DNA of 64,000 bases. Source: Seiridium cupressi. Lineage: Eukaryota; Ascomycota; Sordariomycetes; Amphisphaeriales; Sporocadaceae. Made by a program: the position numbers and the translations under genes. The stretch is from NCBI GenBank assembly GCA_036674765.1, contig JARVKI010000062.1, positions 124,001 through 188,000 on the forward strand, in the 5' to 3' direction. The notes under the pieces were generated by a model that was not told the origin of the DNA, did not search any database, and worked only from the letters and a program-made list of their open reading frames with translations. This document shows positions 4,926 to 52,337 of the stretch, in pieces (the stretch's first letter is position 1; the number at the start of each line of letters is the position of its first letter).

Positions 4926-7900
4926 AGCTCGTGACTGGGTCTCTTTTGCGATGGACAACTTTGTCCTCGCCTCCGCCCGAGGCACTATGTCTTATGATGG
5001 CCATGTCGACGCTACCTCTAGGCCCCGATTTTTCACGAGTGGAGACCTCCATTTAAGATTTGAGCACACCATCGCAACTGCTACATCTTTGGCCGAAGAT
5101 GGAGTCCTGCACAGGTTAGACGAGCAAACTTGCAAGGAGCAAAGGAGACTTTCAAAAGCCACAATGTCTGATCTTTGGCCGCTCGATTTATGCTTTCTGC
5201 AAGGGTGTAAGGGTATTGCTTCAATACTTCCTGTGCTCGGCAAATGGCGGATCAGCCGGAAGTGGAGACCATTCAGCAGGGAAGTAGCACTGGGGTTTCC
5301 ACATGTTATCTTTGTCCAGACGATTGGACTTCGCAACCTCCGCAATTTGATTCTCTGCCGCATAATGCGTGGAATTGATAATTTTTGAGTACAAGCTGGC
5401 TACCCTGCATCAGCTTTACGAAGCTAAATACCGGCAGTCGAGCAGACGGGCCGGGCCGTACGAGCTATTGGTTACTTGAATTTTCGTCCTGACTAATGCG
5501 AAACGTCGGCTGCTCTACCCGGTCTTTTCCGAGCCATACCAATACACAGGCTAGTTCGGGCTCTTGCTCGTTATGGCTCCAATGCCAAGTCGACGGTCTC
5601 AAAGGCTGCAGAGCCACGAGGCGCAACGTAACAACAATTTTGCATTGGGCAGTCCACAACACGACTGCGACGTCCCAGTCCGCTCGCAATACCAGCCGGC
5701 CTAGAAACACACCGGAGGGTCAAGCTCGAACCCAGAGGCTCTAACGCTTACCGTAGCATACATATATGCTTCTTGTAGTGTGGGTGCAACCCCAGCCCAG
5801 TCACCACTTCTCAAACGGGTCGGATAGCCACACCCTGCAAGAACTGGGCAGACATTTCGATCTAGAGTCGAACAAATTAGATTGGCCTATCGGACATGAA
5901 CACCCACCCCTGTTGCATCATCTTACTGATACCTACATCACAGCTGCTATTGACCATTCCTCATTTGGCATCTCTCGGCTGTTGCGTACGGCTTCGCGTC
6001 CGCCCCTTAGACTACGAATGCAATTTCAGGCTTACAAGTAAGACTACAGGCAACAGCTATTAGTGACATTTTAGCAAATATCTCGACACCACGGCGACAT
6101 CAACTAAATATTACGCCTGCTAATCTTATAACCTAGCAGAAACAACTTTACTTTCACTAACCGAGTCGCCTTACAAAGCAGATCTCCTGCAAGTCACTGT
6201 TATAACTGGATGAGTACTAGTATTGAGGAATCGCTCCGCTCCTTCGATCTTAGGCTTATAATTTGGCCTATGTGAATGCCGGCCAACCCGATGCATGCTA
6301 TCGATGTCGAAGTATGCCCGGTGGAGAAGACAGTCGTATGGTGCAGGAGGTCAGAGCGCAAGACTGCACACTTCTCTAAGAGTGCTGATTTTGCGAGTAT
6401 ATAACTCAATAATATAACGAAATTAAAATATTTTAAAAAATACCAACTTATAAGGCATGTAATTATTAGTATATATATAAAATCTAAAACTTTTACGATT
6501 CTTTACTTTATTTCTATTATTGAATTTGTTGAGTTCTCACCGAAATCTGTGGGGAAGTGTGCAATCTTTCGCTCTGACCTCCTGGGTGCTCCACGAGACG
6601 AGTCTAATTTTGTCTGGAGCTTGTCTTCTGTCTATCTTTTGCAACATACGGTCCAAATACTCCGGATACCTTAGCAACCTCCTCACTAGAAGGTGGCCGA
6701 TTTATTGGTTCCTTCGAACCAAAGCCGAGCTGTAGTTCGTCACTATTTCAGCGCCGCTAATCTCGGGGCAATGCTGCAATAGTCTTTCACCATTTGAATT
6801 TGAAACTCATCAGGATCAAGGGTTGCCGCCAGGCGGATAGCCCGACGATGCTCCTGAACGCCACAGGTATATACGGGGCGGTTTTCTCATTCCTAAGTCG
6901 CATTCATCCTGATGGACGCATAATATGAGGAACGTGTATGTATTGTGTGGTCTAGGAGGAGGAGGGAAGCTCCTGCTCTCCTGCCATGAGGTCTAGCTGA
7001 AGAGGGAACCGTACAGACCACCTGTAGGGTTTCCATTACATTTTAGGAAACTAGTACAACGCATCGTCACAACCTAGCACATCACCTAAATATTCCCACG
7101 ATTCGCAACGACCCTTGATTTTCTGGCCCAGTTTTTATTGCAATTATCCCAAGTCCCGACTAGTGTATAGTCTTTAGATATGTGCCGCCAGGACCAAGCA
7201 AGGCGCGGCTACCGGACTCCCGGACGACAAGCGCGACCCAGACTAGCTGTTATAACCATCAGAATTGCCCTAAAAGTCACAGCCGCCTAATAGTAATTAA
7301 TTTCGCCGATAAGTTAGCACGCCATCCAGCTGTATCACTGCATAGTTATACATGGAAGCGGCCGTTGACCCTTCCCTTAGACTCGGCTCGCTATGTCTTA
7401 CGATCTACCTGACGCGCCACGTTCTTCCTGATAGTAAGGCATTGTAATGCTAAAACGGGCTCCCACAGGTGGTCTGTGGGGTTCTCCCTTAGTTAGTCCT
7501 CATGGCTGGGAGCTGGAGCTTCCCACCTTCTCCCTCGCCACTACACAATATACGGATTCACCCGTACTGCGTGCCCATTAGATGCAAATGCCAATATAAT
7601 ACACTTTTTTCTAGGTGTGATTGCAATAAATTCAGAACTTTATTTATATATAAAGTGTCAGGACTAGCCCCGCTCCTACAGGGATTTCGGCAAGGGGTCG
7701 ATAAATAAAGTTAGCCGGACTTATAATTGAGGTTATCGGAGATCACTCGGACCGAGCACAGCCCGAGAAAACTGGGTAATCGATCGATCGTTTCTATATA
7801 ATAATATTGCCGAATAAGAAATAGTTCGGTAGGTCTTAATTATCACGCAATAATACCTTTATTACTGCTTTTATCACTCGTAATTCTAGAAATCTCACAT

Positions 7901-10775
7901 AAAGACTACCCGGAAGTAACGAAGCTATAACCTTTAATTAAAAGCCTAGCCGAGCTACACGAGCTGGCTGGTAACGTTTATCACCTTTTCGAGGATTGGT
8001 TATATACGTCCGATGTCTGCTTGGCAATTGTCGGACACCGACCCGTTAACCCACGGCGAGTAACGGCACGCAATACGACTGCTTATAGTATATATTACTG
8101 TCGTAGTTGCAGTAAATCACCCCCCAAATGCCTTCGAAGAGCTCTAACCAATTATTATACGCATCACAAATACAGCAGATATATCGATAAACATTAAGAG
8201 TTGTAATTATACTTAAAAACGGAATAATAACATCCATTTCATCTTCTCTGTTTAAAGATTGCTATTTTTAGTTAAGCTAGCATCACTTACCCCTTTTGCA
8301 CCGTGTGACCCGCTTTAGCTGCCAAAATACCGATCCCCAATAATCACCTCGGCTGTCTCTTAACATTTTGTTTTCTCGTATTTTCTCCTCTGAGAGTTCA
8401 AAGGCCTCTAAGTGAGATACTTTACGCGCCATACTCATAGCTCAAGCCCGTCCACGTTGAATGTTACGGCACAACTCCTAGTGCAACCCTAAACAACTGA
8501 TTATTCTCTCGGGGAAGCCGGCAAAGTGGAGCCCTCCCTCGTGCTCCGGGCCCCCGTTATAGCACAGATCCATCCCAAGTTGGAAAAAACCTTAAGTCAT
8601 TTTCCTAAAATATCGCGGCGAGAAGGACGCGAAATTATTAATCTTTAGTCAAGAGCCCCGGGCGCGCCGACAGGCGGTGATCACCTGGCCTAGGATGCAT
8701 CACGTGGACGGGCTTTTGCATCCTTGTACGCTACCATGACTTTAGTTTCCTGTTAATCAAGATAAGCATGACCAATCACGGTACCGCCATGGATGTCGTC
8801 CTTGTCACGCAGCTGCCGCATACTAGGTGGCACGGGTACCACGTAATTCAGCCGAATAACCATTTCTTAGTAACTTGCGGAAAAGCGCCTGTGATTTACG
8901 ATCCCAGCCCTGAAAACCCCGAGCCCGAGCTGCACATTTTGCTTCGCATTACTGCCGTCACCGTAACGCTGAACTAATGACTTTTCTTTCTAGCACCTCA
9001 GGGATCTAAGCGAGTGAGGTACACCGACGCTGAATCAAGACACTTCGGTAGACTGACGTGGCCAAAACATTGGCGGCCGGGATTGTCCATGCATCCACAA
9101 TAGAATGAGTGCCAAGCAGGCAGTGACCCCACAGTTGAACAGAAGCGCCCACGGTCTCAATCAACCCGAGTCCTTCTGGGCAGCAACCAGAAGGAGCTTT
9201 GCTCGGATGTCGAGTTCCTGTCACACGGTAAGACCCCGGTTACTTTAGTAATTAGTCAAACTTTGACGTCTGATTATCGGTTGGTGGCATAAACTCGACA
9301 TCCAAGCGGCGCTCCCACCCCCAAAACGGACTTGATTCTTTTTACGCATGGGAGTAACATCCTCCTTGGTTTATATGCCATGTGTCCGTTTTGAAATTCG
9401 TCTCTTCTGGTCGCTACGCGTTATGCACGATCGACTTGGGATCCAGCCTGCATATAAATAATCCCTAAACAGACCCGAAGTTCTCTATAAAGCCGCTTGC
9501 GAACCTGAATCGAGTTAGACCGTTAGGATCTTTCCGCTGCCGTTAGAGCCGTTGTGAGCGCGGGAAACGGACCTTGGACCACTCGCGAATGCATAACATT
9601 TAGCCCGGGGACTCTAAGTAACCGAGCTGCCAAACTATTTAATAGGCATAGGCATTATTTAGTATTTAGGAAGACAGTAGAGATGTAGGACGGACGTCTA
9701 AAGGGTTTAAAAACCTCCCGTGGCATCGTGTATACTCTGTAAAACATTCGCACGGCATCTCTCTTAAGCCCGAGGCTTTGTAGAGGAGTCAACCGCTAGG
9801 TCGGCCGAGGCCCTTTTAGGCGAATGCTGAGCATAAACATGACAAGAAGGAGATATTGGAATCGGCGGAAGAGAATGGCCCTTAAATGTTCCTGGTTGGA
9901 GTCCGGAAGAGACGGCTAAGGTGCGGTCACTGTCATCGAGGCTGTTGTCTAGAATGTGGGAAGGCCGGTTATACCTACTCACAGATCTTCTGATCCCCAG
10001 CCTCACTTCCCCACTCATGTCCGCCAGTCTGGTGTCGGACAGAAAGTGGCTACTTTGATTTCTTCTCGCTCTTGCTGTTTGATGTGCACAGATACCAGTG
10101 CCGCGTTTTGGCTTTGGACTTCAAATTTATAACTGTCAAACTGCAGTTCTACTGGGATGCCAACCGATTATACGTCAACACGCCTTATAGAAAACGACCT
10201 AAAGCAGCCTTATACTTGTCCAATATCAGCAATAGTAGCGGATGAGGAGACAACGCATTGAATATCACGCGAGTATGTCCTTGGTCTTTGATTCACGTTG
10301 GTACAAAACAGTATAGGCAGGTCAGTGTTGTTTGTGTCTTTGGATGTGATGAGTTTTCGATCGGTAACTTGGCTCCCTCACCCGTCAAGGACGTTCGAGC
10401 AAGTGACAGTGAGCGTGCTCTGTACGGAGCTGGTAGTTCCTAGGACGACAGGGCGACAAGATGGCCAAGCTGGGTAACGGGTTTGTTATTGCTGGCCATG
10501 TTGATGTATAAATAAAGTGAATTTGAATTTAAAAATTCAAGACCAATCAGAAGAATATATACCCTAGGTAATACAATAGCACTGCTATATATTATAATCC
10601 TTCTCGTCCTTTTTAGTATTAAATAGCAGCCTGCATTTGTAAACGGGTCTATCGTATATTTTTTGTTATACGTTAAACAATAATGACAAGCCTGAATATA
10701 AGTCATATTAACAGGTGTATAATGCGTTATTGAAAAGCATGTGCGGATCTCCTAGGACGGGATTTCATAGCATTC
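4926..10775. other. Gene-poor stretch, no supported gene
   Basis: Both strands were read and only short open frames without recognisable domains, consistent splice sites or compositional bias were found. The regulator's start codon at 4925 marks its left edge. It contains one fold-back repeat (6344-6584) and AT-rich patches near 6410-6510, 7600-7900 and 8060-8280. No tRNA, CRISPR or long tandem repeat is visible. It may be old mobile-element sequence decayed beyond recognition. Confidence 0.5.
6344..6584. repeat. Fold-back (inverted) repeat
   Basis: Bases 6344-6376 and 6552-6584 are reverse complements at 30 of 33 positions. The similarity continues inward more weakly for about another 30-40 bases on each side, toward an AT-rich centre around 6430-6500. 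The whole would fold into a long hairpin. It resembles a small non-autonomous fold-back element or a degraded terminal-repeat pair; no target-site duplication was established. Confidence 0.55.
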
Positions 10776-11258
10776 TTACAATAATGCGTTAATATAATTG
10801 GGGCAAGAGAAAGTAGTGGGCGTGGTTATTTCCGGAATGCTGGCGTCGAGATTTAAGAGCCCAAAGCAAGCATCGTATTTTTTAATAATAGAAGAAAGAT
10901 TCAGTATTATGGAATCGTCTAGTTTCTGCAGTAAGTCTTCTCTTGCTTTAATCAGCGCAGCCCACTCTGGAATATTACGGACGAAGCGTCGTGCTGGGTC
11001 AATCTTGATACCTTTTTACGCGTAGAATGAAGGATCTTGCGCTTCAAGTACCGACTCGAGATCAAGGCCGTTCTCTAACGTGATACCATATATTTTCTGG
11101 AACTCCATCTTGAGATCCTCCCGTGCGACCCTTGAGCTGAGCCAGTCGCAATAGTCCTGAACTACGTCGTCCAGAAGTCTAGGGACACCAAGCTTGGCGC
11201 GCGTCCTGATTATTCCTAACACAGTGGAGGGGGGCGAATCTAGGTTCGAGTTTGTCAT
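10776..11258 (-). pseudogene. Broken gene of unknown function with internal stop
   Basis: One reading frame runs from an ATG at 11258 to a stop at 10776 (160 codons), interrupted by a single in-frame TAA at 11016-11018 after residue 80. Both halves look like genuine protein: VVQDYCDW and KMEFQKIYGI before the stop, IDPARRFVRNIPEW and LIKAREDLL after it. Continuity of coding character across the stop argues for a nonsense mutation, not chance. I do not recognise a named domain. My impression is that similar short proteins recur in fungal genomes near mobile elements, but that is not something the sequence proves. It sits alone in the gene-poor island, next to GC-rich palindromes at 11451-11595. 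Confidence 0.5.
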
Positions 11259-12939
11259 CGAGCCACTCGTGGATGCACTCAGCAGCGCGTTGGTAATGTT
11301 AATTGGCGGTCACTTGCCTTGCACTGGTTTACTGTCAGATGGATTGTGCAACAGAGTGAAAGGCCACGAAGATGATGATAGTTTCTAGATAGATAGGATA
11401 CAGACTGATCTCTGCCCTTCAACCAATATGGGTTGCCGCCCCTTGATATCCGCGGCGCAGGCGCTGAGCCAGCGCCGCACCTTCGCGGCGCTGCGTCAGC
11501 GCTGTATCGGTACTGTATCAATCCCTTCGGCCCGAGTCTCATCCCTTACTAGTGGTTTCACGCTGTCTGTGCGCTGCGTCAGCGCAGCTGCTGCATTCGC
11601 GTCTGACATTTACCCTGACGTTCCAACCTTTGCTTATTCTCCGCGTAGAGCATTTCGCATATATCTTCCCGGAACGTTATGTGTGTCTAATGCATGGCCG
11701 TCCTGGACATATTTAGTGAGACGAATTGGATAAAGCGTTCTTAGCTTGTATCTCTTCTTCGTGTTACTGTCCCGCTAATAGTACGGACTTTGGGGGCAAG
11801 GGGGACTAGTGCGTGGCATGTTACTACATATACGACGCCATAGAAGAGGTTTGCCAGACGGATTGACTTGCCTATCGAGTTTTTGAAGTATTAGCTCAGT
11901 CGCCGACCGTGCATTCCGGTACTTTCTCCACCGCGTGACTTATTGCTAGGAGGGACTTGGTACGGGCACTATCTCTACATACTTGAAATAAATATATTCA
12001 TAATAAATTTCTATATAAACCACAAGCCATGGTCGCCGAAAGGCGGCCCCTGGGAATCGAAATGAGGCATGACTGGTAGGCAGGTAGACTCGTCCGAAAT
12101 CGTTGCTCCAAACGAGCAAAGCAGCCCAGTCATTGCGTCAGGGCGTCCGTCCTTAGATGGGGTTTACGTGGCTAGATAGACTTTGCAGCTGTGGAACAGC
12201 CTCTCAGAAAGAACCCGCGGTACAGGTGAACTGCGGCGGCTTGCAATATGGGGAAAGCGACTATGGTGGAGGCACCCACACCTGTGGGTTCGAACGAATG
12301 TCATCATCCTTGAAACCTGACCTTAAGGGATGGTCCCCGTTGGATAGAATAGAAAGAGACATGATACGCTAAGCCTGAAGTGCACTGGCGGAGGGTTTAG
12401 GCCATGCCCTGCCGTGCCCAGTGAGCGGCGTATAGTCAAACTAGCAGTGCAATTAGTCTTCAACCTCGTTTCGGAAACCATTCAAAAACAGAGAATACTG
12501 ACCATGCTATCCTGCTACGCCATTGCAACGCGCGCGTAGCCTTTTGTCATGCGAACAAGATGATGATTGGCCGTCGGAGCCCGCTGTCCAAGCGGGTTTG
12601 TAGCCGCACGAGGCTCTGGACGGACCCCATGAATTGCTGGGGGAGATTCGACTACCAGGTATTCGAAGTCGACAGAGCTGGGGCACACCGACTCAATTCA
12701 TCGGACTCAAAACTAGGGTAAAACCGGTCCTAGTCTGACGACATTTAAACCTTCCGTAGATACCGGCGGAAGGCTGCCATAATTTATGAGGCGAGACGAG
12801 ACGAGACCCGCGACCGCCTAAATCTAACTTATAAAACACCTTTAAACATGTGTGCTGGTCTATTAGTTTGGAAATCTTTCAAAATAGCCAAAGGCTCCAA
12901 AGCCTTTCCATGGGGCCCATTTTGGGTGCCATCGACCTC
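11259..12939. other. Intergenic, no supported gene
   Basis: Apart from the GC palindromes at its left end, nothing supports a gene. The open frames are short, overlap on both strands and have no recognisable motif. Confidence 0.4.
11451..11595. repeat. Cluster of GCGCTG/CAGCGC palindromes
   Basis: Three or four closely spaced GC-rich palindromic units built on GCGCTG..CAGCGC occur in about 145 bases, in otherwise moderate-GC DNA. Examples are GCGCTGAGCCAGCGC near 11461 and GCGCTGCGTCAGC near 11489 and 11571. Repeated subterminal motifs of this sort are common at the ends of fungal hAT-type transposons. No transposase or matching second end was identified, so this is only a suggestion. Confidence 0.35.
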
Positions 12940-13080
12940 GTTGAGAAGGAATAAAGGTTATAATGTGAGTTGAGTGATTAAATAAGTATCAGAAGGGTGC
13001 CAGAGGCAGAAAGAGGTAGCTAGTCTATATAATGGCTGGGAAGCCCGATAATCTAGGTGGCTGAAGCCCTTATTCTGACA
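12940..13080 (+). repeat. Dispersed repeat, copy A (type-2 end)
   Basis: About 140 bases beginning TTGAGAAGG..AAAGGTTATAA and ending with GGCTGGGAAGCCCGATAATC and GGTGGCTGAAGCCC..TATTCTGACA. It matches copies B, D and F over its full length with scattered differences. Its inner part contains a GGCTGGGAAGCC-like short palindrome. Confidence 0.75.
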
Positions 13081-15225
13081 AACCTCGATAGGGTAATTGA
13101 TTGAGTAACCTTTGGGAAGATGGCTCAAATACAGTGGAAGGCCTGTCGGGTGTTGCCAATTTAGTTAGATAACGTGCATAGCGAGATTTTATATTGGATC
13201 TTATGGTATAACAATCTTTCTAACTAGTTGTCCTCAAGTTTCTTTGATGCACATTACTAGTCTCAGATTCCATCCCCGTAAAGTTATTAACAGGCACTGG
13301 TTTATATCTCTAAGCTTAAAGTAACTTATTAGCGTGTATTCCTTTTACCTTTATCGCTTGGGCTTTACAGCCCGAGTTCCTCTTTTCGGAGGAGAGCAGG
13401 ATCATGCGTTCTGTGGTCCTGGCAGTCCAGTACTCAAACCAGTGCATTATACTCGCTTACTTAAAGACACGATCTTAATATTTCTAGACGCTCAGTATAC
13501 GTGGCAAAGCGTTGGATCACACCGGCTATTTATCCAGCTGTTCGCGACTTCGCGGCAGGTTTTTGATCTAGATCACTGTGTCCTGGCCGGCGAGACACTT
13601 GGAAGAGGAACGTGCGCATGTACTACGGTCGCGAAGGCTCTTAACGAGGTGTTGGGTTGGTCTAGTTGAGCCCCAGTCCTAAATCGTGTCTCTGTCTTGT
13701 CGTCACTCAGTCTCTGTACTGGCTAGCTCTCACTGATAAACAGATAGAGGGCCCACTCGCCCGTCCCCGTTTCGAAGTCGGAAGCTTCCAGAGCACAGGC
13801 CGTTCGTTCGCTAGAGTTGGAGGCTTACTCAACCATATGAGCCACTTTTCCTAAGCCCTGCATTCGTTAGAACCAACTTGTGGAGCTTGCCGCTCTTGAT
13901 GGCAATGGTATAGTGGCAGGGTCTTCACAGCGTGTGAAACAATCACGGATCAATAGGTGCTTGGAGAGCGATACAGTTTATTAGATATATTTCTGGCTCG
14001 ACAAACTGTATGTACAGTAAGGCATGATGCCCGACTCAGAACGAAGGGAGCGACCGATGGGTGTTGGGAAGGCAGGTATAGGCCACATTTTAAATGAGAA
14101 CAGGAGCGAAACCCAAAATATGGTCGAGAGGTTCGTCATTTATTCTAACCACGGAATGTGTTAATTTGATTGGTTGTCATTCGAACATAGCTTATATAGC
14201 GGTATTGGGTCTACCAAAAAGTGAGATCATTCTCCGTAACAGGTCGAACTTTGTAGCCGAGCCTCTAATTAGGCCGTTAAACTGGCGGCCAAGAGCTAGG
14301 ACTATGCTGCTCTAACCGTGCTTTCCCTTGCATCTGGTTGATAAGCAGTCACCAAGTCGTAAGGCGTAAGGTCATCTCGGTTGGCTGTTCCATTTCCCAA
14401 ACTGATTCCAATGCGGACCAATCTCCCCCGCCCCGAGGTACTGTATGTTGGGCATGCGACTTCGTTTAGCGACTTCCGAACAGCTAGGACCATCGAGCCG
14501 CGTGTCCACCGGTGGCAAATTTTTTAGCGTGCGCTTATTCGTTAAGACTAGGGCTCACAGAATGGATACGAAGCTAATGATGTTCCCCCTTTCTTAAGCA
14601 CATGCACAACGGTGACTTCAGCGACATGAATTAAAGATGCCACTGTAGTCTATTTCCCCTAAAAAGCTTCCCAGAGGCTAAATAATCCATTGAGTTTTAG
14701 TCCGAAGTAGCCCTTGAACTCCAGTTTGTCATGGGATCACAGATCTCACACCTATATGTGATATTGCCCGTAAAAGTCCGCAAATTCCACGCAGATCTAT
14801 ACGATAATGTTTATGAGCTCGAATCTCGTACTACGTGACGATTCCGGTCGGTGTTGCAAGACAATATACCCAATGTAATTCAAAAGTGGGTTCCTCGGCA
14901 CGGGTGCTTGGAGGACGAGTGGCTTCAAATCGGTCCAATGCGATACGAATGCCAGACAGATACGACAGAACAGAGAGGGACCATTTCGTTAGACCTATCG
15001 TATTTGTGAGCTCATTTGAACTTGGCGCGTAGCAACGATATGCTTGCGGCATTTCTGATTGCGACTATTTACGGGTGTTCCCGCAAACCTTCGCACTGAC
15101 CGTGCCTTTCCCAGACCTTGTGCTGATCATACACCACTGAAATTAGGCATATTGAATGATTGCAGTAGTCGTTTCACCCTTGCTAGCTCGTACGAGATGA
15201 TGCCTTCGCTTCTAGGTATAGAGTA
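13081..15225. other. Intergenic between repeat copies, no supported gene
   Basis: Between repeat copies A and B. Only short, unconvincing open frames on both strands. No coding motif, RNA gene or tandem repeat was seen. Confidence 0.4.
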
Positions 15226-42699: not shown

Positions 42700-43054
42700 T
42701 GGCCGCTAACAATGCAATTCGTGATAATATTGAAAGAATTCAGAATAAAGAATTTGGATTTCGATTGAGCATTTCCAAACCATCTTGTTCATAAAATGGA
42801 TTTGCTCGATCTCTCGTCTATGCCTCGGCTCCAGTATTAACTACCACTTACCCGACATTCCCTCATCACCATTGGCGGTCACTAATATTTATGCATCTCC
42901 CCGCCTTTTGTCCCTAAATGTCCGCCATTTCCCCGCAACACCCCAGATGTCCCGCTTCCCATGCAGTATCCACTGGCTTTGCCGAACACTTCATCTGCGC
43001 CCTTGGCAGAGTCTGCAGCAATTCGAATTGACGAAAGCATGTGGTTGGGAGAGA

Positions 43055-44532
43055 ATGGATGGTACGCCGTGGGACCAGTCACCGTCGGGATCCGGGACGA
43101 TGTCCGCCCGCCGACTTAAAAAGAGGGAGCAAGACCGACTGGCGCAAAGAGCAGCGCGAGGACGAACGAAGCAGCGAATCTCCGAGCTGGAGGCAACAGT
43201 GGCCGAGCTAAGTCATGCTCGCCCAGGCCAGGGTATCGGGAGGCTGAGAGAGCAGCTTGCGACCGTGACGAAGGAGAAGGACGGGCTTGTCCAGACCTTG
43301 AATTCCATTCAGAACCTCATTCAGGCGCGTTGCAGTGGTGACAGCGTGCTTCGTGAGGATTCATCTCATCACGCTCCACGCCCGCCCTCTGCGGCTTCAA
43401 GTGGTCCCTCCATAGGATTGAGCAATGCTGTGGACGGGCCTGCCTCGAACGCAAGTAGAATTGACGATAATGGCTATCCAACCTTGCCTACGACCGAGTT
43501 GCTTTCCCCAACATCGCCCACTCTGGACGTCGGTTCACAGGCGACAATAATGATGCCAGCAGCATTTTCGGGTGACATAGATATCACCGGACAGCTTTCT
43601 GGAGAAACTCTGGTGCCCTCTCCGGGTACATGCGACTGCTCCTATTGGAATCCGATTGACACCGGCAACAACTCGTCGCAACACCGTAGTTTATGGCGAT
43701 CTGCAAACAATTACCTCAAGGAGCCCAGCAAGGCCTCGGCCAACGAACTTACCCAGGCAGACCAACAAGCCGATGACATACCAGTGAGGGTGTTGTTGGA
43801 AGGCTGGGATTCCATCGCAAAATCCGGCCAACTATCTCCCCTCTGGGCCAAGCTAAAGGAAATAGACAAACTCCAGTTTAGCAACTGTGGGGATGTTGAA
43901 CGATTGGCTATTCTCAGGACGATGCATTCGCTACTAAAATTTCACGTCGAGCCAACGCTGGACCACTGTACCAATCTGCCTCAATGGTATCTCGAATTGT
44001 CGGTAACCCCAATATCTGCGATGTTCGAGTATTTGCCAGCTAAACAGCTGCAGGCCTTCTCAGCGTCTTCCTCACTCTTACGCCATCGATTTCTTCGTGT
44101 GGTAAGTCACAAACTTGAATCTCCTTTGTAACTTAGTCTGTGGCTCACGCTAATTGTATTATGTGAACCAACAGGCCCGGAGTCAGGGATAAGTTTGTTT
44201 TCTCCGAGCATAGATATTGCTCGAATCGCTTCTGGCGTGTCTTTACGGAGTCATTTCGTATCTCGTGGCCCTACGAATTCCGAGATTGCTACAAGAATAA
44301 CCTTGCCACGGGACAAGTAAACATATCTGCAGAATTCGACGGATGCATCCGGAACATCAATTCCTGGGCCATGGGTTCCGACTTCTTTGTGCATTTCCCT
44401 GAAATGCGCAGCGATATTCCAGCATATCTGTCAATACCAAGTTCCATCGGTACTCCACATGTGGAGGATGCCCATGGCCAACAAACAAGCGTCAAAACCA
44501 CCGTAGGGACTTCACTTTCAACGAGTTCATAG
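43055..44532 (+). CDS. bZIP transcription factor with DUF3425-type C-terminus
   Basis: ATG 43055 (MDGTPWDQSPSG) was chosen as the last methionine well before the basic region; the frame stays open upstream to 42785. The basic region is KKREQDRLAQRAARGRTKQR, followed by a leucine-zipper-like ISELEATVAEL. A long acidic/serine linker follows, then VRVLLEGWDSI. After an intron that starts GTAAGT at about 44102, an open frame contains PGVRDKFVFSEHRYCSNRF, WRVFTESFRISWPY and NSWAMGSDFFVHFPEM, typical of DUF3425 proteins, ending at 44532. The phases of the obvious donor and acceptor (CAG at about 44176) do not match: the expected frame needs a one-base change or an unusual splice site. The C-terminus may therefore be frameshifted. 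Confidence 0.75.
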
Positions 44533-45172
44533 CTTTCTGCGTTGTAAAAAATAAAAAAATTTACGTGAGGATTCCAAGAAATGGCTTTTTGCTTCTGAGG
44601 ATGCGGTGGTTGAAGGTAAATTGGTGAGAATAAGGACCACTGCGAGCCAAGCACCAACCGGCTGCATGACTACTCATCTGAACAATCCCCACGAACCTAG
44701 ACTATGTGTGCTCCTACCAGAGATACATATATACTTGGGATATTAGTATGTATATATTGCCGGGGAGGTTATCGATATATAGGTAGTGTTATGTAACCTT
44801 TTAAGTTGTCATTTTTAAACTTATTTGAAAACAAAATGAGTCATCAAGGATAGGACAAATCAGGAATCCTCTCCGATTCTCCGACAATGCGCCTCCTAGG
44901 TTTCATACCTGCTTTCCAAACGCCGATCAGAGTACGATCTTGGCCCGCTATGCATGAGTCAGAGAGACTAAAATGCAATGTCAGGAGCTAATGTCTTGGT
45001 ATTCTCAACTTCCCCGCATTCCCGATCGCCTGGGACCCGGGGAAATGCTCCAAAACCAATAATCTATAAATGAAGCCTAGATGCAGATTACCCATGATAT
45101 TACTTGTGTGAGCACCAAGTCTGTTGCTACGTCAGTCCCTTAGATATTGAACACATAAGAGCAATTTAGTCA
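44533..45172. other. Intergenic, no supported gene
   Basis: 3' flank of the bZIP gene and presumed promoter of the MFS gene. TATATATA-type runs lie near 44725-44780. No other feature was recognised. Confidence 0.35.
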
Positions 45173-47055
45173 ATGAATATGGCAGCAATTTACGACACAC
45201 GACTACCAGGACAGGAAGTCTCAAAACTTGACAGCCATGAAGCGTGCACCATTGACGGCATTGTGACCCACACTGGAGATGCGGAGAAAGCCAATTCTGA
45301 GCTCCAAGCCACCAGACTAAGTCCTTCAGAGGAGAAACGATTAATGTTGTTTTTGACATAAGCCGTTGAGCTACTATACACTAACATATATTTCCAGCCG
45401 ACGAATCGATCGAAGGCTACTCCCCATCTTGGGTATCATGTACTCCATATCTCTGATCGACCGTACAAACTTGGGTCTAGCGCTTGTAGCCGGCATGCAA
45501 GAAGATCTTGGTCTCGGCGTGGCCAATCGCTATACCATTGTTGTCATGCTGTTCTTTTTGACTTACATGTAGGCATATCTGCGAGCAATCCTTGGCTCAC
45601 ACACTAATTCACGAAAAAGTATCTTTGAAATCCCCAGTGTACGTCTTCGACACTGAATACTCGACATTATCGACTGATATGAATATCTTGAAAAGAACCT
45701 CATATTACCCAGAGTAGGTCCAGCAAATTGGCTTGCTTTTCTGGGTGTCAGCTTCGGAGCCATTCTCATTGGCATGGGCTTCACAAAGAGCTGGGAAACA
45801 ATGGCACTTTGCAGGGCTCTTCTGGGGGTGGTAGAAGCCGGATTCCTTCCAGGTCAGTAATGTGGACTCCCATCGAGGATTCATACTGAATAAGGCACCA
45901 GGCTGCACTTACCTGATCACTTGCTGGTATACACGATTTGAGGTTGGGAAAAGGATCTCCGGCTTCTGGATCCTCTCCGTCCTAGCTAGTGCTTTCTCAG
46001 CTATATTCGCCTATGTGCTCACCCTGCTTTCCGGGAAGGCCGGTCTGCGAGGATGGAGTTGTGAGTTTGTGCAATAAATGCTACATCGTTGTGTTTCTAC
46101 TAATTGGTACTGAACTGTCGTAGGGATATTCGTTATCGAGGGAATAATTACGTGCCTGGTATGCTTTGCCGGTCGGTTCATTATCATCGACTTCCCCTCT
46201 CAAGCGAACCACTTTTTGAAGTCGGAGGAACAAGCACACATAATTGCACGGATCGATCGTGACCGAGGCGATGCGGTGGAGGATGAGGTAACCTTCACCA
46301 AGATCGTGCACCATCTGAAGGATTGGCGGCTATATGTGTGGGCTTTCAATCTCATGGCGTCAACCTTGCCCGGTTACGCGTATTCTTATTTTCTCCCCAT
46401 CATTCTACGCAGTGGAATGGGATTCAGTAGCACAAATAGCCAGCTCCTAAGCGCCCCGCCTTACATCCTTGCGGCTATCATTACCTATATATCCGGTTGG
46501 TTAGGCGACAGATTCCACATAAGGGGCCCCATCATCGGAATGCACCAACTCCTCACGGCTATCGGAATGTTATTGACCGCATATGGTGGGTCAAACGCAG
46601 TTCGCTATTTCGGAGCCTTTTTAGGTAAGTCTGGTTTCATTCTCCAGGCACCGGTGGCTCATCGCCCTGACACGCCAAAGGCATCGGATTTGTCCAATAT
46701 TGCATCCCTGGTGTCCTCACGTTCCAGGCCAATAATATTACACAACACTCCAAGCGCGCAGTTGCAACATGCGTATGTATCACAGGAGGTGGTTTTGGTG
46801 GTATCATTGCCAGCCTCGTGTTTATTTCTCGGGAAAGCCCAAATTACACCGTAGGTCTCTCTCCGCATAACGATATATCGTATAATCTTTATTGACTTTT
46901 CTTCTGCAGACTGGTGTATTCACGACTCTGGGTATATCTCTTGCAAGTATTGTCTTCATCGCAGGTCTGGATATCTATCTCTGGGTGCGTAATAAAAAAG
47001 TCAAAGTAGGCACTCATCAGAATGAAGGGATCGAGGGTTGGTTGTACACTATTTA
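45173..47055 (+). CDS. MFS transporter, allantoate/anion permease (ACS) type
   Basis: Membrane carrier of the anion:cation symporter group (Dal5-like). The cytosolic N-terminus (ATG 45173) ends in RLSPSEEKR, followed by RRIDRRLLPILGIMYSISLI and DRTNLGLALVAGM, hallmarks of the group. Further exons give VGPANWLAFLGVSFGAILIG, CRALLGVVEAGFLPG, CTYLITCWYTRFEVGKR and FVIEGIITCLVCFAG. The cytosolic loop FLKSEEQAHIIARIDRDRG follows, then the second half with SYFLPIILRSGMGFSSTNS, SGWLGDRFHIRGP and, across an intron at about 46624-46679, IGFVQYCIPGVLTFQ. The last exon ends GWLYTI at 47055. At least seven short introns, including one or two micro-exons near 45620-45720, are required; those were not fixed. 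No clear lesion was seen. Substrate unknown. Confidence 0.82.
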
Positions 47056-47324
47056 GGTTGCCTTGCTCGCCTGCCGATTAGACCAAGTATCCTCCTACGA
47101 ATGTTTTCGGGTGTAATCTGCGTATGAATTCTTCATATATTGTCTCTCTAAAATTCTCAAAATGAAAGACATATCGAAGTGTCGTAATACTCAGACTGGA
47201 AGTATTAATGGAAGAGATGAGGGCTTCCATACCCTCCTGACTTGCACCTTGGGTGACCGGCTCCGACGGGCACACGTCAGGCGACCACGGCACCAGCAGT
47301 GATCTGAAGTCATGTCACGAGGCC

Positions 47325-50262
47325 CTATTGTGTACGTGTACCTACATCCTTCAGAACATGAATCTGCCCATAGAGGTCTGTCACGTCAACAAACATGCGC
47401 AGTGCACTCATCAACTCCCCGGGGCCTAGTTCCTTCTCTAGCAGATTCATTGCCACGTCTAGTCCCCGTCGCTCATATTCGGCAATCCACAAGAGCTCCG
47501 ATTTAGCGTCACCACTGCTAGTAGAAGACGTAATCGGGCTTGCCTGCTTTCCACCGTGATAGAAAAATTCGGGAAAGTTGACCGAGTTGAGAGCGTGTTC
47601 CTCCTCGTCGCGTTCCAAAGACCCGTAATCTTTGTACATGCGGCAGAGATTGGCGACAGGCGTCCTCGGCGAGATAGGCGGTGCGTGCCGAGGACAGTAT
47701 GCCGCCATTGCGAGTCTGGGCGGTATCAGACAGCGCAGCGCCCACTAGACAAGTGAGGAAAACGAAAGAGAAGGGACAAGAGGTGTGATCGGCCGAAGTG
47801 CTGCGCACCCAGCGGTAGAAAGTTCGCCCTGGCTGATCGTACTGCAGAGTCAAGTTCCCATTGACTGAGTGCACAACATTTCCGTTACTTAGAAGAGTTC
47901 CTTTGCCGTTTGATTGAGACTGTGTACGGAGGCGATGGTTGTCTTCAGCATGCATGATGTGTGCCAGGATAAACGTCTGTAACTCGGAAGCAAGTTGTCC
48001 CTGAAGGCGGGCAGGACTTGATTGAACCGCTGGGTGTTCCAAAATTCGCTCTATGAAACTAAAGAGTACAGCCTTCACGTCATTTACTGAAGGCTGATCT
48101 AAAGAATCGTGTTGCTGTTCCAGGTCAAAGGTAGTCGGACTACTACCGTTGGTGAACAACTCAGAGGTTTCCGAGCTCTGGTTAATAGTCTTGGCTTCAC
48201 CAGAATGGCCATTCGTGTTTCCGTTCACCTTGCCACTATAAGCATGGGAATGGGTACTAGTGAAGAGCTGTCCGACTAGGCCGCGGATAACATCTAGATC
48301 GGTACTGAAATGCTTTTCAATGACGCCCCCCATGTACTCGTCCGCATGGAAATTCAAGATGGATAATACCATCATTTCGTATAAGACGGAGAGGCTGATC
48401 GAGCAGCCATGAACCTCTGCACAAAGTAAAACGGCTAGCGGTATGATGAAGATGTACTTGTCCTTGCCCTTGGCCGTCCGCGGGAAGATATCAGGAGGTT
48501 GACGCTGCAGCGCCTGCAGAGCAGAACAGGCTTGCAACTCAACAAGCTGTACGATACCCGGTTCGGTGTCACGAATGAGGGGAGTACGAGCCAGAAAACT
48601 TCCAGTTTTCCTCATGCCTATTAAAAGCTTATCGGGAGCTAGGAATAGGTCGTCTTTGCAGGGCGTCCCAATGACGATGGCTGACACAGGTTCAACCGTC
48701 GACGGGAAAGGAATTAGAAAGCCGCCAAACAGTATGCTTCACTGAGTATGTCGGAACTGTATGTCACTTTTTCAGTCCACATGTGGTGACCTCTACCCCA
48801 TTACCCCCTGTTCAACTGGAAGAACGATTTCCCCAGTGCCATTGAGGAGAAGATCTTTCCCTTCTCCAGTTGTCGCACAAAGGGCAATCTTTAGTAGGGA
48901 TGATAGTGCTAAGATGCTATACGATGTGGTCTCGCCTACGTCAATCCATGATCCATTCTTTTGCTGACTAGGTATGAAATATGCGAATGAGCACTTGCAA
49001 CAAGACCATCGGTAGGTCAAGAATGATCTTTCCCTTCAAATGTCAGTATGGCGGCCTCGACACTGTTGTCAGAGCCCAAGTGATGGAGGGCTTCAAGCCC
49101 TTTGGCCGTGTCAGCTACATCAGGTAGAATGCCAGGGGCTGTTTTCATGATGTTAGCAAGATTATTACCTTACATGATTAACCCAAACGCTATTTGACAT
49201 TTGGTATAGCCTAGTTCAATCAAGAGTATAGAATCTTTAACTCACCAAACCCAAGAAGTCCTTTCTGTTCCTCAAGTGCTTCCTGTAAGGTTTTACGCAA
49301 AATCAACGAGTCGGACGGGTCCGGAGACACCCCAAATGTTGCAAGGGTAGTAACCACCTTGGTGAGAAAGGTCAGTCTTGACATTTGAATTTTGCTTTCT
49401 GATCAGTACTCACCCAGCTAATTTCAAAAACCGTCGGCGGCTAGGCAGAAGATACACCTCCATTATCTCGACTAACGACATCCTTTAGATAGGACTCAGC
49501 CTTGTCGTCCCAAGAGGATGAGTTCATGAGGTATGCAGCCGTGGTCCTTTGAAACATCAGTCAACTATCGTCGGACACTTTAAATGTCGGTACTTACGCA
49601 GGAGAGTCCATGAAAGACCCGTTGGCCTCTTGCCATTGGCCAACTTTATCGAAGTCAATGTAACCGATGAATGCCTCAAGAGAGTGGTACGAAGTGGATC
49701 GAATCTTGTACACCGTTGAAGAAGGAATCTTAGCGAGCTTGGCATCTCTGACGGCTCGCAGAGCACTAAGCTGTGGGAACTCTATGAAGATTTCTTCCTT
49801 CTCTAGAAGACCTAAGAGAGAAATAATCAAAATCTCCTGTCCAACCTGGTCCGTCGAATACATATCCCACCCTCTCAGTATATCCTCTAGGGCAGCCTTG
49901 GCCTTTCGTGACCTAAGAAGCCAGTCCTGATTATCCGGCTGAATCTTGAGGTGCTTGATCAGAGAGAGCAATGCTGCGGCTGTGTTCAAGATGCCATCTA
50001 CAGGCGTCGTGTAAGACTCCCATGCCTCAGATGGAAGCTGTCGTGCTAGTACGAACTCAAAACACTCCGGAAATAACCATGTAGTGGCCACATAGATTCC
50101 AAATCCCGTCTTCGCGGGCTTCTGCACCATGGAGAGCCATGCTGTGTCGTACAAATATGATGACATGGAACCCACCTCTTTTCCTTTGCCGAAAGAGCAT
50201 TGTGCTGCCAACGCAGCGAACAGTGCATTTCCTTGGTGATGCCAAGAGCTCGAGATGCCCAT
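47325..50262 (-). pseudogene. Bifunctional diterpene synthase (CPS/KS type), heavily damaged
   Basis: Fungal class II/class I diterpene cyclases convert GGPP through a copalyl diphosphate. From 50262: SMSSYLYDTAWLSMVQKP, WLFPECFEF, GILNTAAALLSLIKHL and LEAFIGYIDFDKV mark the N-terminal part; SSSWDDKAESYLKDVV follows. Lesions: TAG at 49441-49443 before PPTVFEISW; the class II DxDD motif reads DVAD (ILPDVADTAK, near 49110), so the catalytic middle aspartate is alanine; a one-base deletion after EGKDH (near 49023) shifts the frame; about 100 residues normally between that point and QQKNGSWIDVGE are missing. The class I part (48687 down) has NFHADEYMGG, where a DExxE-type metal motif would be expected, and YKDYGSLERD in place of the NDxxSxxxD/E motif. 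A frameshift near 47670 precedes that block. Not functional; a clear relic. Confidence 0.85.
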
Positions 50263-50301: not shown

Positions 50302-51418
50302 ATGTCACAATGTTAGTAGCACATAACATGTTCAGTTCTGTAGCCCACGTCTCGTATTTGACTTATACAGATACTTCCCTCGGGCGTATCGGCGTCATAC
50401 CTGGGGACCCACGAACCCCCAGTTCGTGGCAACACCTTGGACTTGTCCAGCGCCATCTGCGCTTCCAACAGCATATCTTCCATAGCTTTGACCACAAGCT
50501 CATGATCGTTGTAGACAATGAGTCTCTTGCATACGATAACGCACGATTACCTGAATAAACTCGGCATGGCAACGTGCCAAGGTCTTCCATACTGGCTGCC
50601 CGTTTCTCATCATGCGCGCTTTGAATGATAAGGCTGTACTGAAATGATACCACGGCTCTTTGCATCATATCAACACATTCAGCTACCCTGCCTTTCTGTC
50701 TAACGAGTACATCGGAAATATACATGCGCAATCAGTGCCTAGTTAGATGACTTTCCTCAAACAGACAGACAAGGGGCCAGATGATAGACCGGTCAGTGTC
50801 CGATTCTGTCAACGATCAATCGCTCGGACGCTGCAATGGAAAAATGCACTTCAAGATACAACCCAACCCAGTAAGACGGGCTGGGATACGCGCTGACATG
50901 TACCTAGGGGTAACAAGGTCAGGATGCTCCAAATACCCCACGCAAAGTAGAATGTAGTGGCTTTGCCGCCTCTGGCGCTTTAGTGTCGCCCCCCACGGTG
51001 ACTGAGGTCTCTCACTCCTTACATCAGTTTACATTGGTGAAGTGCGGTATCATTTACGCTATGCGACTAGTCATATTCTTATGACAAGGCCCATATCAGG
51101 CTGCAGGCTCAGCCCTGAAGGTGGGTTGGTTAGTGCTCAGATCATGTTACATTTAAGTGGAGTGGGCATAGCAAACAACTCTTGGCAAGGGCGGCACAAG
51201 CAGGGTCCGGCTATGAAGTAATTCCAAAACAACCCACCGTGAGCACTAGTGGTTATCATGTCATCAAAACCGCTTCCGAGAGAGATGTCCTGAGGTGCTC
51301 ATCAAGAGATATCGGACCATCAGCCAGAGGCTGTAACTGAATTTCGACTGCTCGTCATCCAAACCAAGATATAGCAGAAAGGACAGCAACGCAAGACACC
51401 ATCCCATACCAGTTGAAC
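50302..51418. other. Interval upstream of the terpene synthase relic; unassigned exons
   Basis: Minus-strand frames at 50731-50363 and 50495-50313 contain protein-like pieces (RNGQPVWKTLARCHAEFIQ followed by a GTAATC donor near 50552, then VVKAMEDMLLEAQMALDKSK). They could be exons of one gene or its remains. I do not recognise the family and cannot fix a start. Bases 50740-51400 show no gene. Confidence 0.35.
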
Positions 51419-52337
51419 ATGGCCACCAACCCACCGAAGCCAATTCGTGTTTGGATCACTCGTAGGTAACCCTTCATCCTCGCATTGCCTTTGGCGCATT
51501 CTGGCTGACGTTTTGGCAGCGCCCGGCCCCAACCCATGGAAGGTAAGCACACAACACAGGATTTGTGCGAGCGAATCACACTCGCAACATCCACCCCCAC
51601 ACCATCTGTGGTAACATTTTCTCCGGTAGGCTGTCTTCATCTTTGAGGAGCTTGGCCTCAACTACGAGATCAAGTCGTTCAGTTTTGCACAAGTCAAGGA
51701 GAAGCCTTTCACCGACATCAACCCTAATGGTCGCGTACCGGCTATCGAGGACCCAAACACAAATTCGACTCTGTGGGAGTCGGGTGCTATCTACCAATAC
51801 CTGATTGAGAAGTACGATACCAACCACCATTTGTCCTACGAAACTTTGAAGGAGCGACATCTAAGCAACCAATGGCTCCACTTCCAGATGAGCGGGCAAG
51901 GCCCTTACTACGGCCAAGCCGGCTGGTTCCAGCATCTACACCCTGAGAGGATCCAGTCGGCCATAGACCGATATATCAGCGAGATCAAACGAGTCCTCGG
52001 TGTCCTGGAGGGTGTACTAGCCGCCAAGCCTGCCGATGCGCAATGGCTCGTCGGCAACAAGATGACGTTCGCCGACATAGCCTTCGTGCCATGGAATTTC
52101 CGTCTCAGTGAGGTCATGAACACCTCTTGGGACGAGGTCTGGGCGGGGTTGCCTCACGTCCGCGCTTGGCATGAGCGTATGATCGAACTTCCATCCTGGA
52201 AGCGATCCATGGAGATCCGCGCTCGTTTGATGGACGAACAAGGACTGCAGTGGAACGGCGTCCCCAAGGGCATTGGGACATTCACCGAGTATGAGAAGGA
52301 AATTGCTGCCAAGGGAGAGACGAAAAGGCAGGAGTAG
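51419..52337 (+). CDS. Glutathione S-transferase (Ure2p-like)
   Basis: Cytosolic GST-fold protein that could conjugate glutathione or protect against reactive intermediates. Three exons: 51419-51461 (MATNPPKPIRVWIT), 51520-51542 (PPGPNPWK) and 51630-52337, joining in frame to 257 residues. The thioredoxin-like N-domain shows PNPWKAVFIFEELGLNYEI, NPNGRVPAIEDP and the glutathione-binding ESGAIYQYLIEKY. The helical C-domain has GNKMTFADIAFVPW and RAWHERMIELPSWKRSM. GSTs of this kind occur in detoxification and in secondary-metabolite clusters. It lies next to the diterpene synthase relic but looks intact. Confidence 0.92.

What the first reader, a model, noticed from the sequence alone, without database searches (positions are those of the whole stretch)
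47325..50262. Diterpene cyclase relic with all three active-site motifs changed
The sequence shows DVAD where DxDD should be, DEYMG at the first class I metal motif, KDYGSLERD at the second, plus a nonsense codon (49441), two frameshifts and a missing internal block of about 100 residues. In this family the middle aspartate of DxDD is the general acid. Loss of both class II and class I signatures, besides truncating lesions, means long relaxed selection while gene order was kept. It points to a former diterpenoid cluster here (P450, GST, MFS nearby).
Basis: partly seen in the sequence, partly recalled or inferred. Interest (0 to 1): 0.8.

Follow-up and report, generated by a model that had tools for sequence, protein, structure and literature searches.

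The report
Recently broken diterpene-making gene in fungus
A cypress-canker fungus carries a broken copy of a gene for a diterpene-making enzyme; a sister species appears to keep a working copy, so this is a real but ordinary case of recent gene loss.

Summary
The window is Seiridium cupressi. Its minus-strand gene at 47325-50262 is a decayed fungal bifunctional (class II + class I, CPS/KS-type) diterpene synthase with DVAD, DEYMG and KDYGSLERD. Beyond three ordinary introns it has two in-frame stops, five frame changes and a deletion of about 90 residues. A second S. cupressi strain's predicted protein shows the same 3' shifted frame and class I change, but neither the 49441 stop nor the K of KDYGSLERD: not an assembly error, and decay is continuing. 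The sister S. cardinale has an uninterrupted 1005-residue prediction with all three motifs canonical, so the decay is recent, not long. In the parts compared, the flanking transporter and GST are intact and 97% identical to sister species; the cyclase pieces are 91%. A GST lies beside this cyclase in other genera too. The transporter shows no such link, and the only P450 among the pieces scanned is about 45 kb away, so 'former cluster' is supported for the GST alone. No second locus of this cyclase was found in the genome. Product unknown. Ordinary pseudogenisation; modest interest.

The parts
47325..50262 (-). decayed bifunctional (CPS/KS-type) diterpene synthase gene, start codon to natural stop
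   Evidence: tblastn with S. cardinale P0004; one-frame reading with X at stops; single locus found in the genome
49597..50262 (-). exon 1, open, 222 residues, N-terminal class II part
   Evidence: PDB copalyl diphosphate synthase 8v0f_A E 3e-38
49411..49545 (-). exon 2, with the in-frame stop at 49441-49443
49247..49357 (-). exon 3, open
49023..49139 (-). start of exon 4 with the altered class II motif DVAD (49110-49121)
49013..49022 (-). frame change and junction of the ~91-93-residue deletion
48720..48970 (-). remnant with frame changes near 48970, 48888 and 48718 and a second in-frame stop at 48801-48803
47653..48717 (-). open 355-residue stretch of the class I part with altered motif DEYMG (48328-48342)
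47325..47657 (-). 3' part in another frame after a frame change near 47655; altered NSE motif KDYGSLERD (47607-47633); natural stop 47325-47327
51419..52337 (+). glutathione S-transferase, divergently oriented neighbour, intact in the parts compared
   Evidence: Pfam GST_N/GST_C; 97.2% to S. unicorne over 249 residues, no gap, no stop (a ten-residue middle piece left out); GST on the cyclase's contig in 5 of 60 rows, this species included
45375..47056 (+). MFS transporter, intact in the parts compared, convergent downstream neighbour; probably not a pathway gene

Best explanation
The locus is a pseudogene of a fungal bifunctional diterpene synthase. In a working enzyme of this family the class II site (DxDD) protonates geranylgeranyl diphosphate to a copalyl-type diphosphate, and the class I site (DExxE plus NSE) ionises that to a diterpene hydrocarbon (established family knowledge). 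In S. cupressi the gene lost function after the split from S. cardinale. It has since collected stops, frame changes, a deletion and replacements at all three catalytic motifs, while the GST and transporter beside it stayed intact in the parts compared. Some lesions are older than the split of the two sequenced S. cupressi strains and others are younger. Shown: lesions, motif changes, sister prediction full length, neighbours, sharing with strain 515 at protein level. Inferred: loss of enzyme activity; loss of a labdane-related diterpenoid of unknown structure; time of loss.
For: Species and strain: exon 1 is 100% identical to the S. cupressi SCUP234 protein and 91% to S. cardinale. Lesions. 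Family: PDB copalyl diphosphate synthases. Strain 515's predicted protein carries the shifted-frame stretch upstream of its NSE motif and the class I E-to-G change. More change on the S. cupressi side: 41 against 14 lineage-assigned replacements (p 0.0004); 40 against 17 with two more stretches and another alignment method (p 0.003). S. cupressi replacements fall on conserved columns as often as by chance: 15 of 41, with 34% of columns conserved (p 0.75). Neighbours: MFS 97.4%, GST 97.2%, no gaps, against 91.1% for the cyclase pieces. No RIP signature. PMC10512213 (passages): the middle Asp of DxDD was changed to Ala to eliminate CPS activity, the same change as here.
Against: No DNA of S. cardinale or strain 515 was available: their states are read from predicted proteins, and 515's DxDD segment is left out of its prediction. 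The neighbours also have a few more changes on the S. cupressi side (MFS 6 to 3, GST 5 to 1), so part of the rate excess may be lineage-wide. The upstream bZIP part is only 87.6% identical to S. cardinale, so 91% alone proves nothing. The conserved-column contrast (15/41 against 1/14, Fisher p 0.045) shrinks to 15/40 against 3/17, where I did not test it. In both differences could not be assigned to a lineage.
Confidence: 0.93

Rival explanations
1. A working gene whose lesions are assembly errors.
For: Draft assembly in 228 contigs; the 49441 stop and the NSE change are not in strain 515's prediction.
Against: Strain 515's separate prediction repeats the 3' shifted frame and the class I change and omits the same middle part. 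Neighbouring genes on the same contig show no gaps in the parts compared.
Confidence: 0.03
2. A shorter but functional protein made by other splicing, as in the 647- and 693-residue deposited predictions.
For: Both predictions are deposited as proteins; a 355-residue open stretch survives.
Against: Both drop the DxDD segment and the adjoining middle part, include a stretch of shifted frame, and keep the altered class I motif. Replacements do not avoid conserved columns.
Confidence: 0.03
3. Ancient relic under long relaxed selection.
For: Many lesions; all three motifs changed.
Against: Sister species prediction is uninterrupted with canonical motifs; retained parts are 91% identical to it; some lesions are private to one strain.
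Confidence: 0.03

Closest known systems
Fungal bifunctional diterpene synthases (CPS/KS type); nearest: predicted S. cardinale ent-kaurene-synthase-like protein and Botrytis cinerea/B. porri orthologues (B. fuckeliana_a in the table of PMC4617483 shows the same motif strings as P0006)
   Same: Collinear over the retained length, same natural end as Botrytis, same motif positions
   Different: S. cupressi copy has stops, frame changes, a deletion and all three motifs altered
Copalyl diphosphate synthases of PDB 8v0f / 9q3i
   Same: Class II half alignable (8v0f_A E 3e-38 with exon 1 of the window; E 2.9e-100 with the sister protein over residues 24-538)
   Different: No match of their remaining part to the class I half was reported
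Decayed secondary-metabolism genes in other fungi, e.g. the nonfunctional bikaverin cluster of Botrytis cinerea that is complete in rare strains (PMC3538735, abstract start in the listing only)
   Same: A decayed pathway with working copies in relatives
   Different: Another pathway; here a single core gene with an intact divergent neighbour

Membership tests
Fungal bifunctional diterpene synthase (CPS/KS) | Sequence relationship along the whole length | tested here: met
   tblastn with S. cardinale and Botrytis proteins, E 1e-124 to 0.0; no Pfam match at E 0.1 for any of 7 pieces
Fungal bifunctional diterpene synthase (CPS/KS) | Class II DxDD motif | tested here: not met
   DVAD; 23 chosen relatives: D in 21, 2 gapped
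Fungal bifunctional diterpene synthase (CPS/KS) | Class I DExxE metal motif | tested here: not met
   DEYMG; E in 23 of 23 chosen relatives
Fungal bifunctional diterpene synthase (CPS/KS) | NSE motif | tested here: not met
   K at the first position; N in 23 of 23 chosen relatives
Fungal bifunctional diterpene synthase (CPS/KS) | One continuous spliced frame | tested here: not met
   two in-frame stops, five frame changes, one deletion: a pseudogene of the family, not a working member
Fungal diterpene gene cluster | P450 and GGPP synthase beside the cyclase | tested here: not met
   only P450 match at 1189-1896; 0 of 5 polyprenyl synthase matches on C62; 46 window pieces were scanned, 7 of them of the cyclase, so small exons can be missed
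Cyclase-GST pair | GST gene adjacent to the related cyclase in other genera | tested here: met

The most novel reading that the evidence does not exclude
Among the cypress-canker Seiridium species, S. cupressi has lost its only labdane-type diterpene synthase while S. cardinale keeps one. A diterpenoid then separates the chemistry of the two species, and the GST kept beside the dead cyclase has a role of its own, such as detoxifying host terpenes.
Probability: 0.25. Interest if true: 0.45.

Novelty: new member of a known kind. Interest (0 to 1): 0.28.

Why it matters
It is a clean, recent, still-diverging case of losing a secondary-metabolism core gene, with a closely related sister copy that seems whole, so timing and chemical consequence can be tested. 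The altered DxDD matches the replacement used in the laboratory to switch off class II activity. The recurrent cyclase-GST pair suggests a GST step in this family's diterpenoid pathway.

Tried and rejected
RIP as cause: indices in the gene (0.77, 1.20) are close to the whole window (0.80, 1.19). Intron explanation of the 49441 stop: the deposited 234 prediction removes it with an early donor in exon 2, but then drops exon residues that strain 515 and S. cardinale keep. Second copy in the genome: none with either half of the window gene or with SonA as query (a remote copy could be missed). A coherent gene between cyclase and GST (50316-50731): no Pfam match above cut-off and no second copy for its first piece. 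dN/dS: not done, no sister DNA. No structure prediction was run. A first try at exon 2 used a wrong start and was redone. In one search ten places were listed as differing in strain 515; four of them (residues 550-570), and most of its 42 '515 only' places, look like misalignments around the spliced-out middle and were dropped.

Full report
What the window is. The 222-residue open exon 1 of the finding is identical to a deposited protein of Seiridium cupressi (SCUP234_08841), 99% identical to one of strain 515 and 91% identical to an S. cardinale protein. These fungi are associated with cypress canker (PMC8067579, passages). The genome held is 45.4 Mb in 228 contigs.

The gene. Against the 1005-residue S. 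cardinale protein, the minus strand from 50262 to 47325 is collinear from start codon to natural stop, with three ordinary introns near the 5' end. Exon 1 matches the class II half of solved copalyl diphosphate synthases (8v0f_A, E 3e-38). The class I piece alone found no significant structure. No Pfam family matched any of seven pieces.

Lesions. In-frame stops lie at 49441-49443 and 48801-48803. Frame changes lie near 49020, 48970, 48888, 48718 and 47655. About 91-93 residues are missing at the first of these. The motifs are DVAD, DEYMG and KDYGSLERD, at positions where 23 relatives, chosen from the 60 hits, show D (21, with 2 gapped), E (23) and N (23). PMC10512213 (passages) says that the middle Asp of DxDD was mutated to Ala to eliminate CPS activity. 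PMC4617483 (passages) reports DxDD not conserved in 3 of 47 fungal enzymes and DExxE not found in 11, so single-motif changes are not unheard of.

Age. S. cardinale has an uninterrupted prediction with all three motifs canonical. The other S. cupressi strain's prediction carries the class I change and a stretch of the same shifted frame near the 3' end, but neither the 49441 stop nor the NSE change; its DxDD segment is spliced out of the prediction and cannot be judged. So decay most likely began after the split from S. cardinale, before the two strains parted, and went on since. Lineage-assigned replacements are 41 in S. cupressi against 14 in S. cardinale, with 18 unassigned, over 785 positions; 40, 17 and 18 over 838 positions with two further stretches and another alignment method. 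In S. cupressi 15 of 41 fall on columns that are at least 80% conserved, where 34% is expected without constraint. In S. cardinale 1 of 14 does, or 3 of 17.

Neighbours as controls. In the parts compared, the MFS gene is 97.4% identical to S. cardinale over 428 residues and the GST 97.2% to S. unicorne over 249, without gaps or stops (the MFS 5' end, one short MFS exon and a ten-residue GST piece were left out). The cyclase pieces are 91.1% over 838. The bZIP part further off is 87.6% over 315, so identity alone is not the argument; the lesions are. The controls also lean to the S. cupressi side (6 to 3 and 5 to 1).

Was there a cluster? The GST (51419-52337, divergent) is the only neighbour with evidence. 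Cyclase and GST have consecutive locus tags in Pestalotiopsis fici (PFICI_11972/11973) and Xylaria longipes (g3355/g3354). PMC4617483 (section 7) already lists GST among syntenic genes of fungal diterpene loci in its Fig. 3 legend. The MFS gene shares a contig length with the S. cardinale cyclase only, 1 of 60 rows against the 120 listed of 503 MFS rows (by eye). The only P450 match among 46 scanned window pieces is at 1189-1896. None of the 5 polyprenyl synthase matches in the genome is on this contig.

Wider loss. With both halves of the gene and with a distant relative (SonA) as queries, this was the only locus found in the genome. Other terpene cyclases are present (7 exon-level matches of PF19086 on 6 contigs), so only the labdane-type route would be lost. 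The product is unknown. In the passages I saw, Seiridium compounds are butenolides, a macrolide, cyclopaldic acid and sesquiterpenes, no diterpene. Searches (15 papers; 5; 15 of 25 listed) showed no paper on this gene by title or abstract start.

Conclusion. A genuine, recent pseudogene of a known enzyme family in one of two sister pathogens.

Noticed in passing
P0005, P0006 (Botrytis) against the Seiridium gene 47325-50262: Botrytis orthologues group with Seiridium, Pestalotiopsis fici and a Xylaria (fork 100/100) and nest inside them (98/97; 31-row tree); over exon 1 they are 72-73% identical to the window, Pestalotiopsis fici (same family as Seiridium, recalled) 60%. Suggests horizontal transfer, which PMC4617483 proposed for Chaetomium globosum and Botrytis.
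   Followed up: partly
42749-47056: The deposited S. cardinale transporter (771 aa) joins a bZIP gene to the MFS gene; in the window these look like two genes, so the prediction is probably a fusion artefact.
   Followed up: partly
50316-50731: Overlapping open frames between cyclase and GST with gene-like sequence but no family match above cut-off; nature unknown.
   Followed up: partly
G000:C14:17562-19157: Adjacent polyprenyl synthase and terpene cyclase matches, as in a fused fusicoccadiene-type synthase (type recalled); stops within the reading may be introns.
   Followed up: no
6001-14000: Stretch with RIP indices nearer 1 (TA/AT 0.97-1.09) than the rest of the window, perhaps old repeat DNA.
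   Followed up: no
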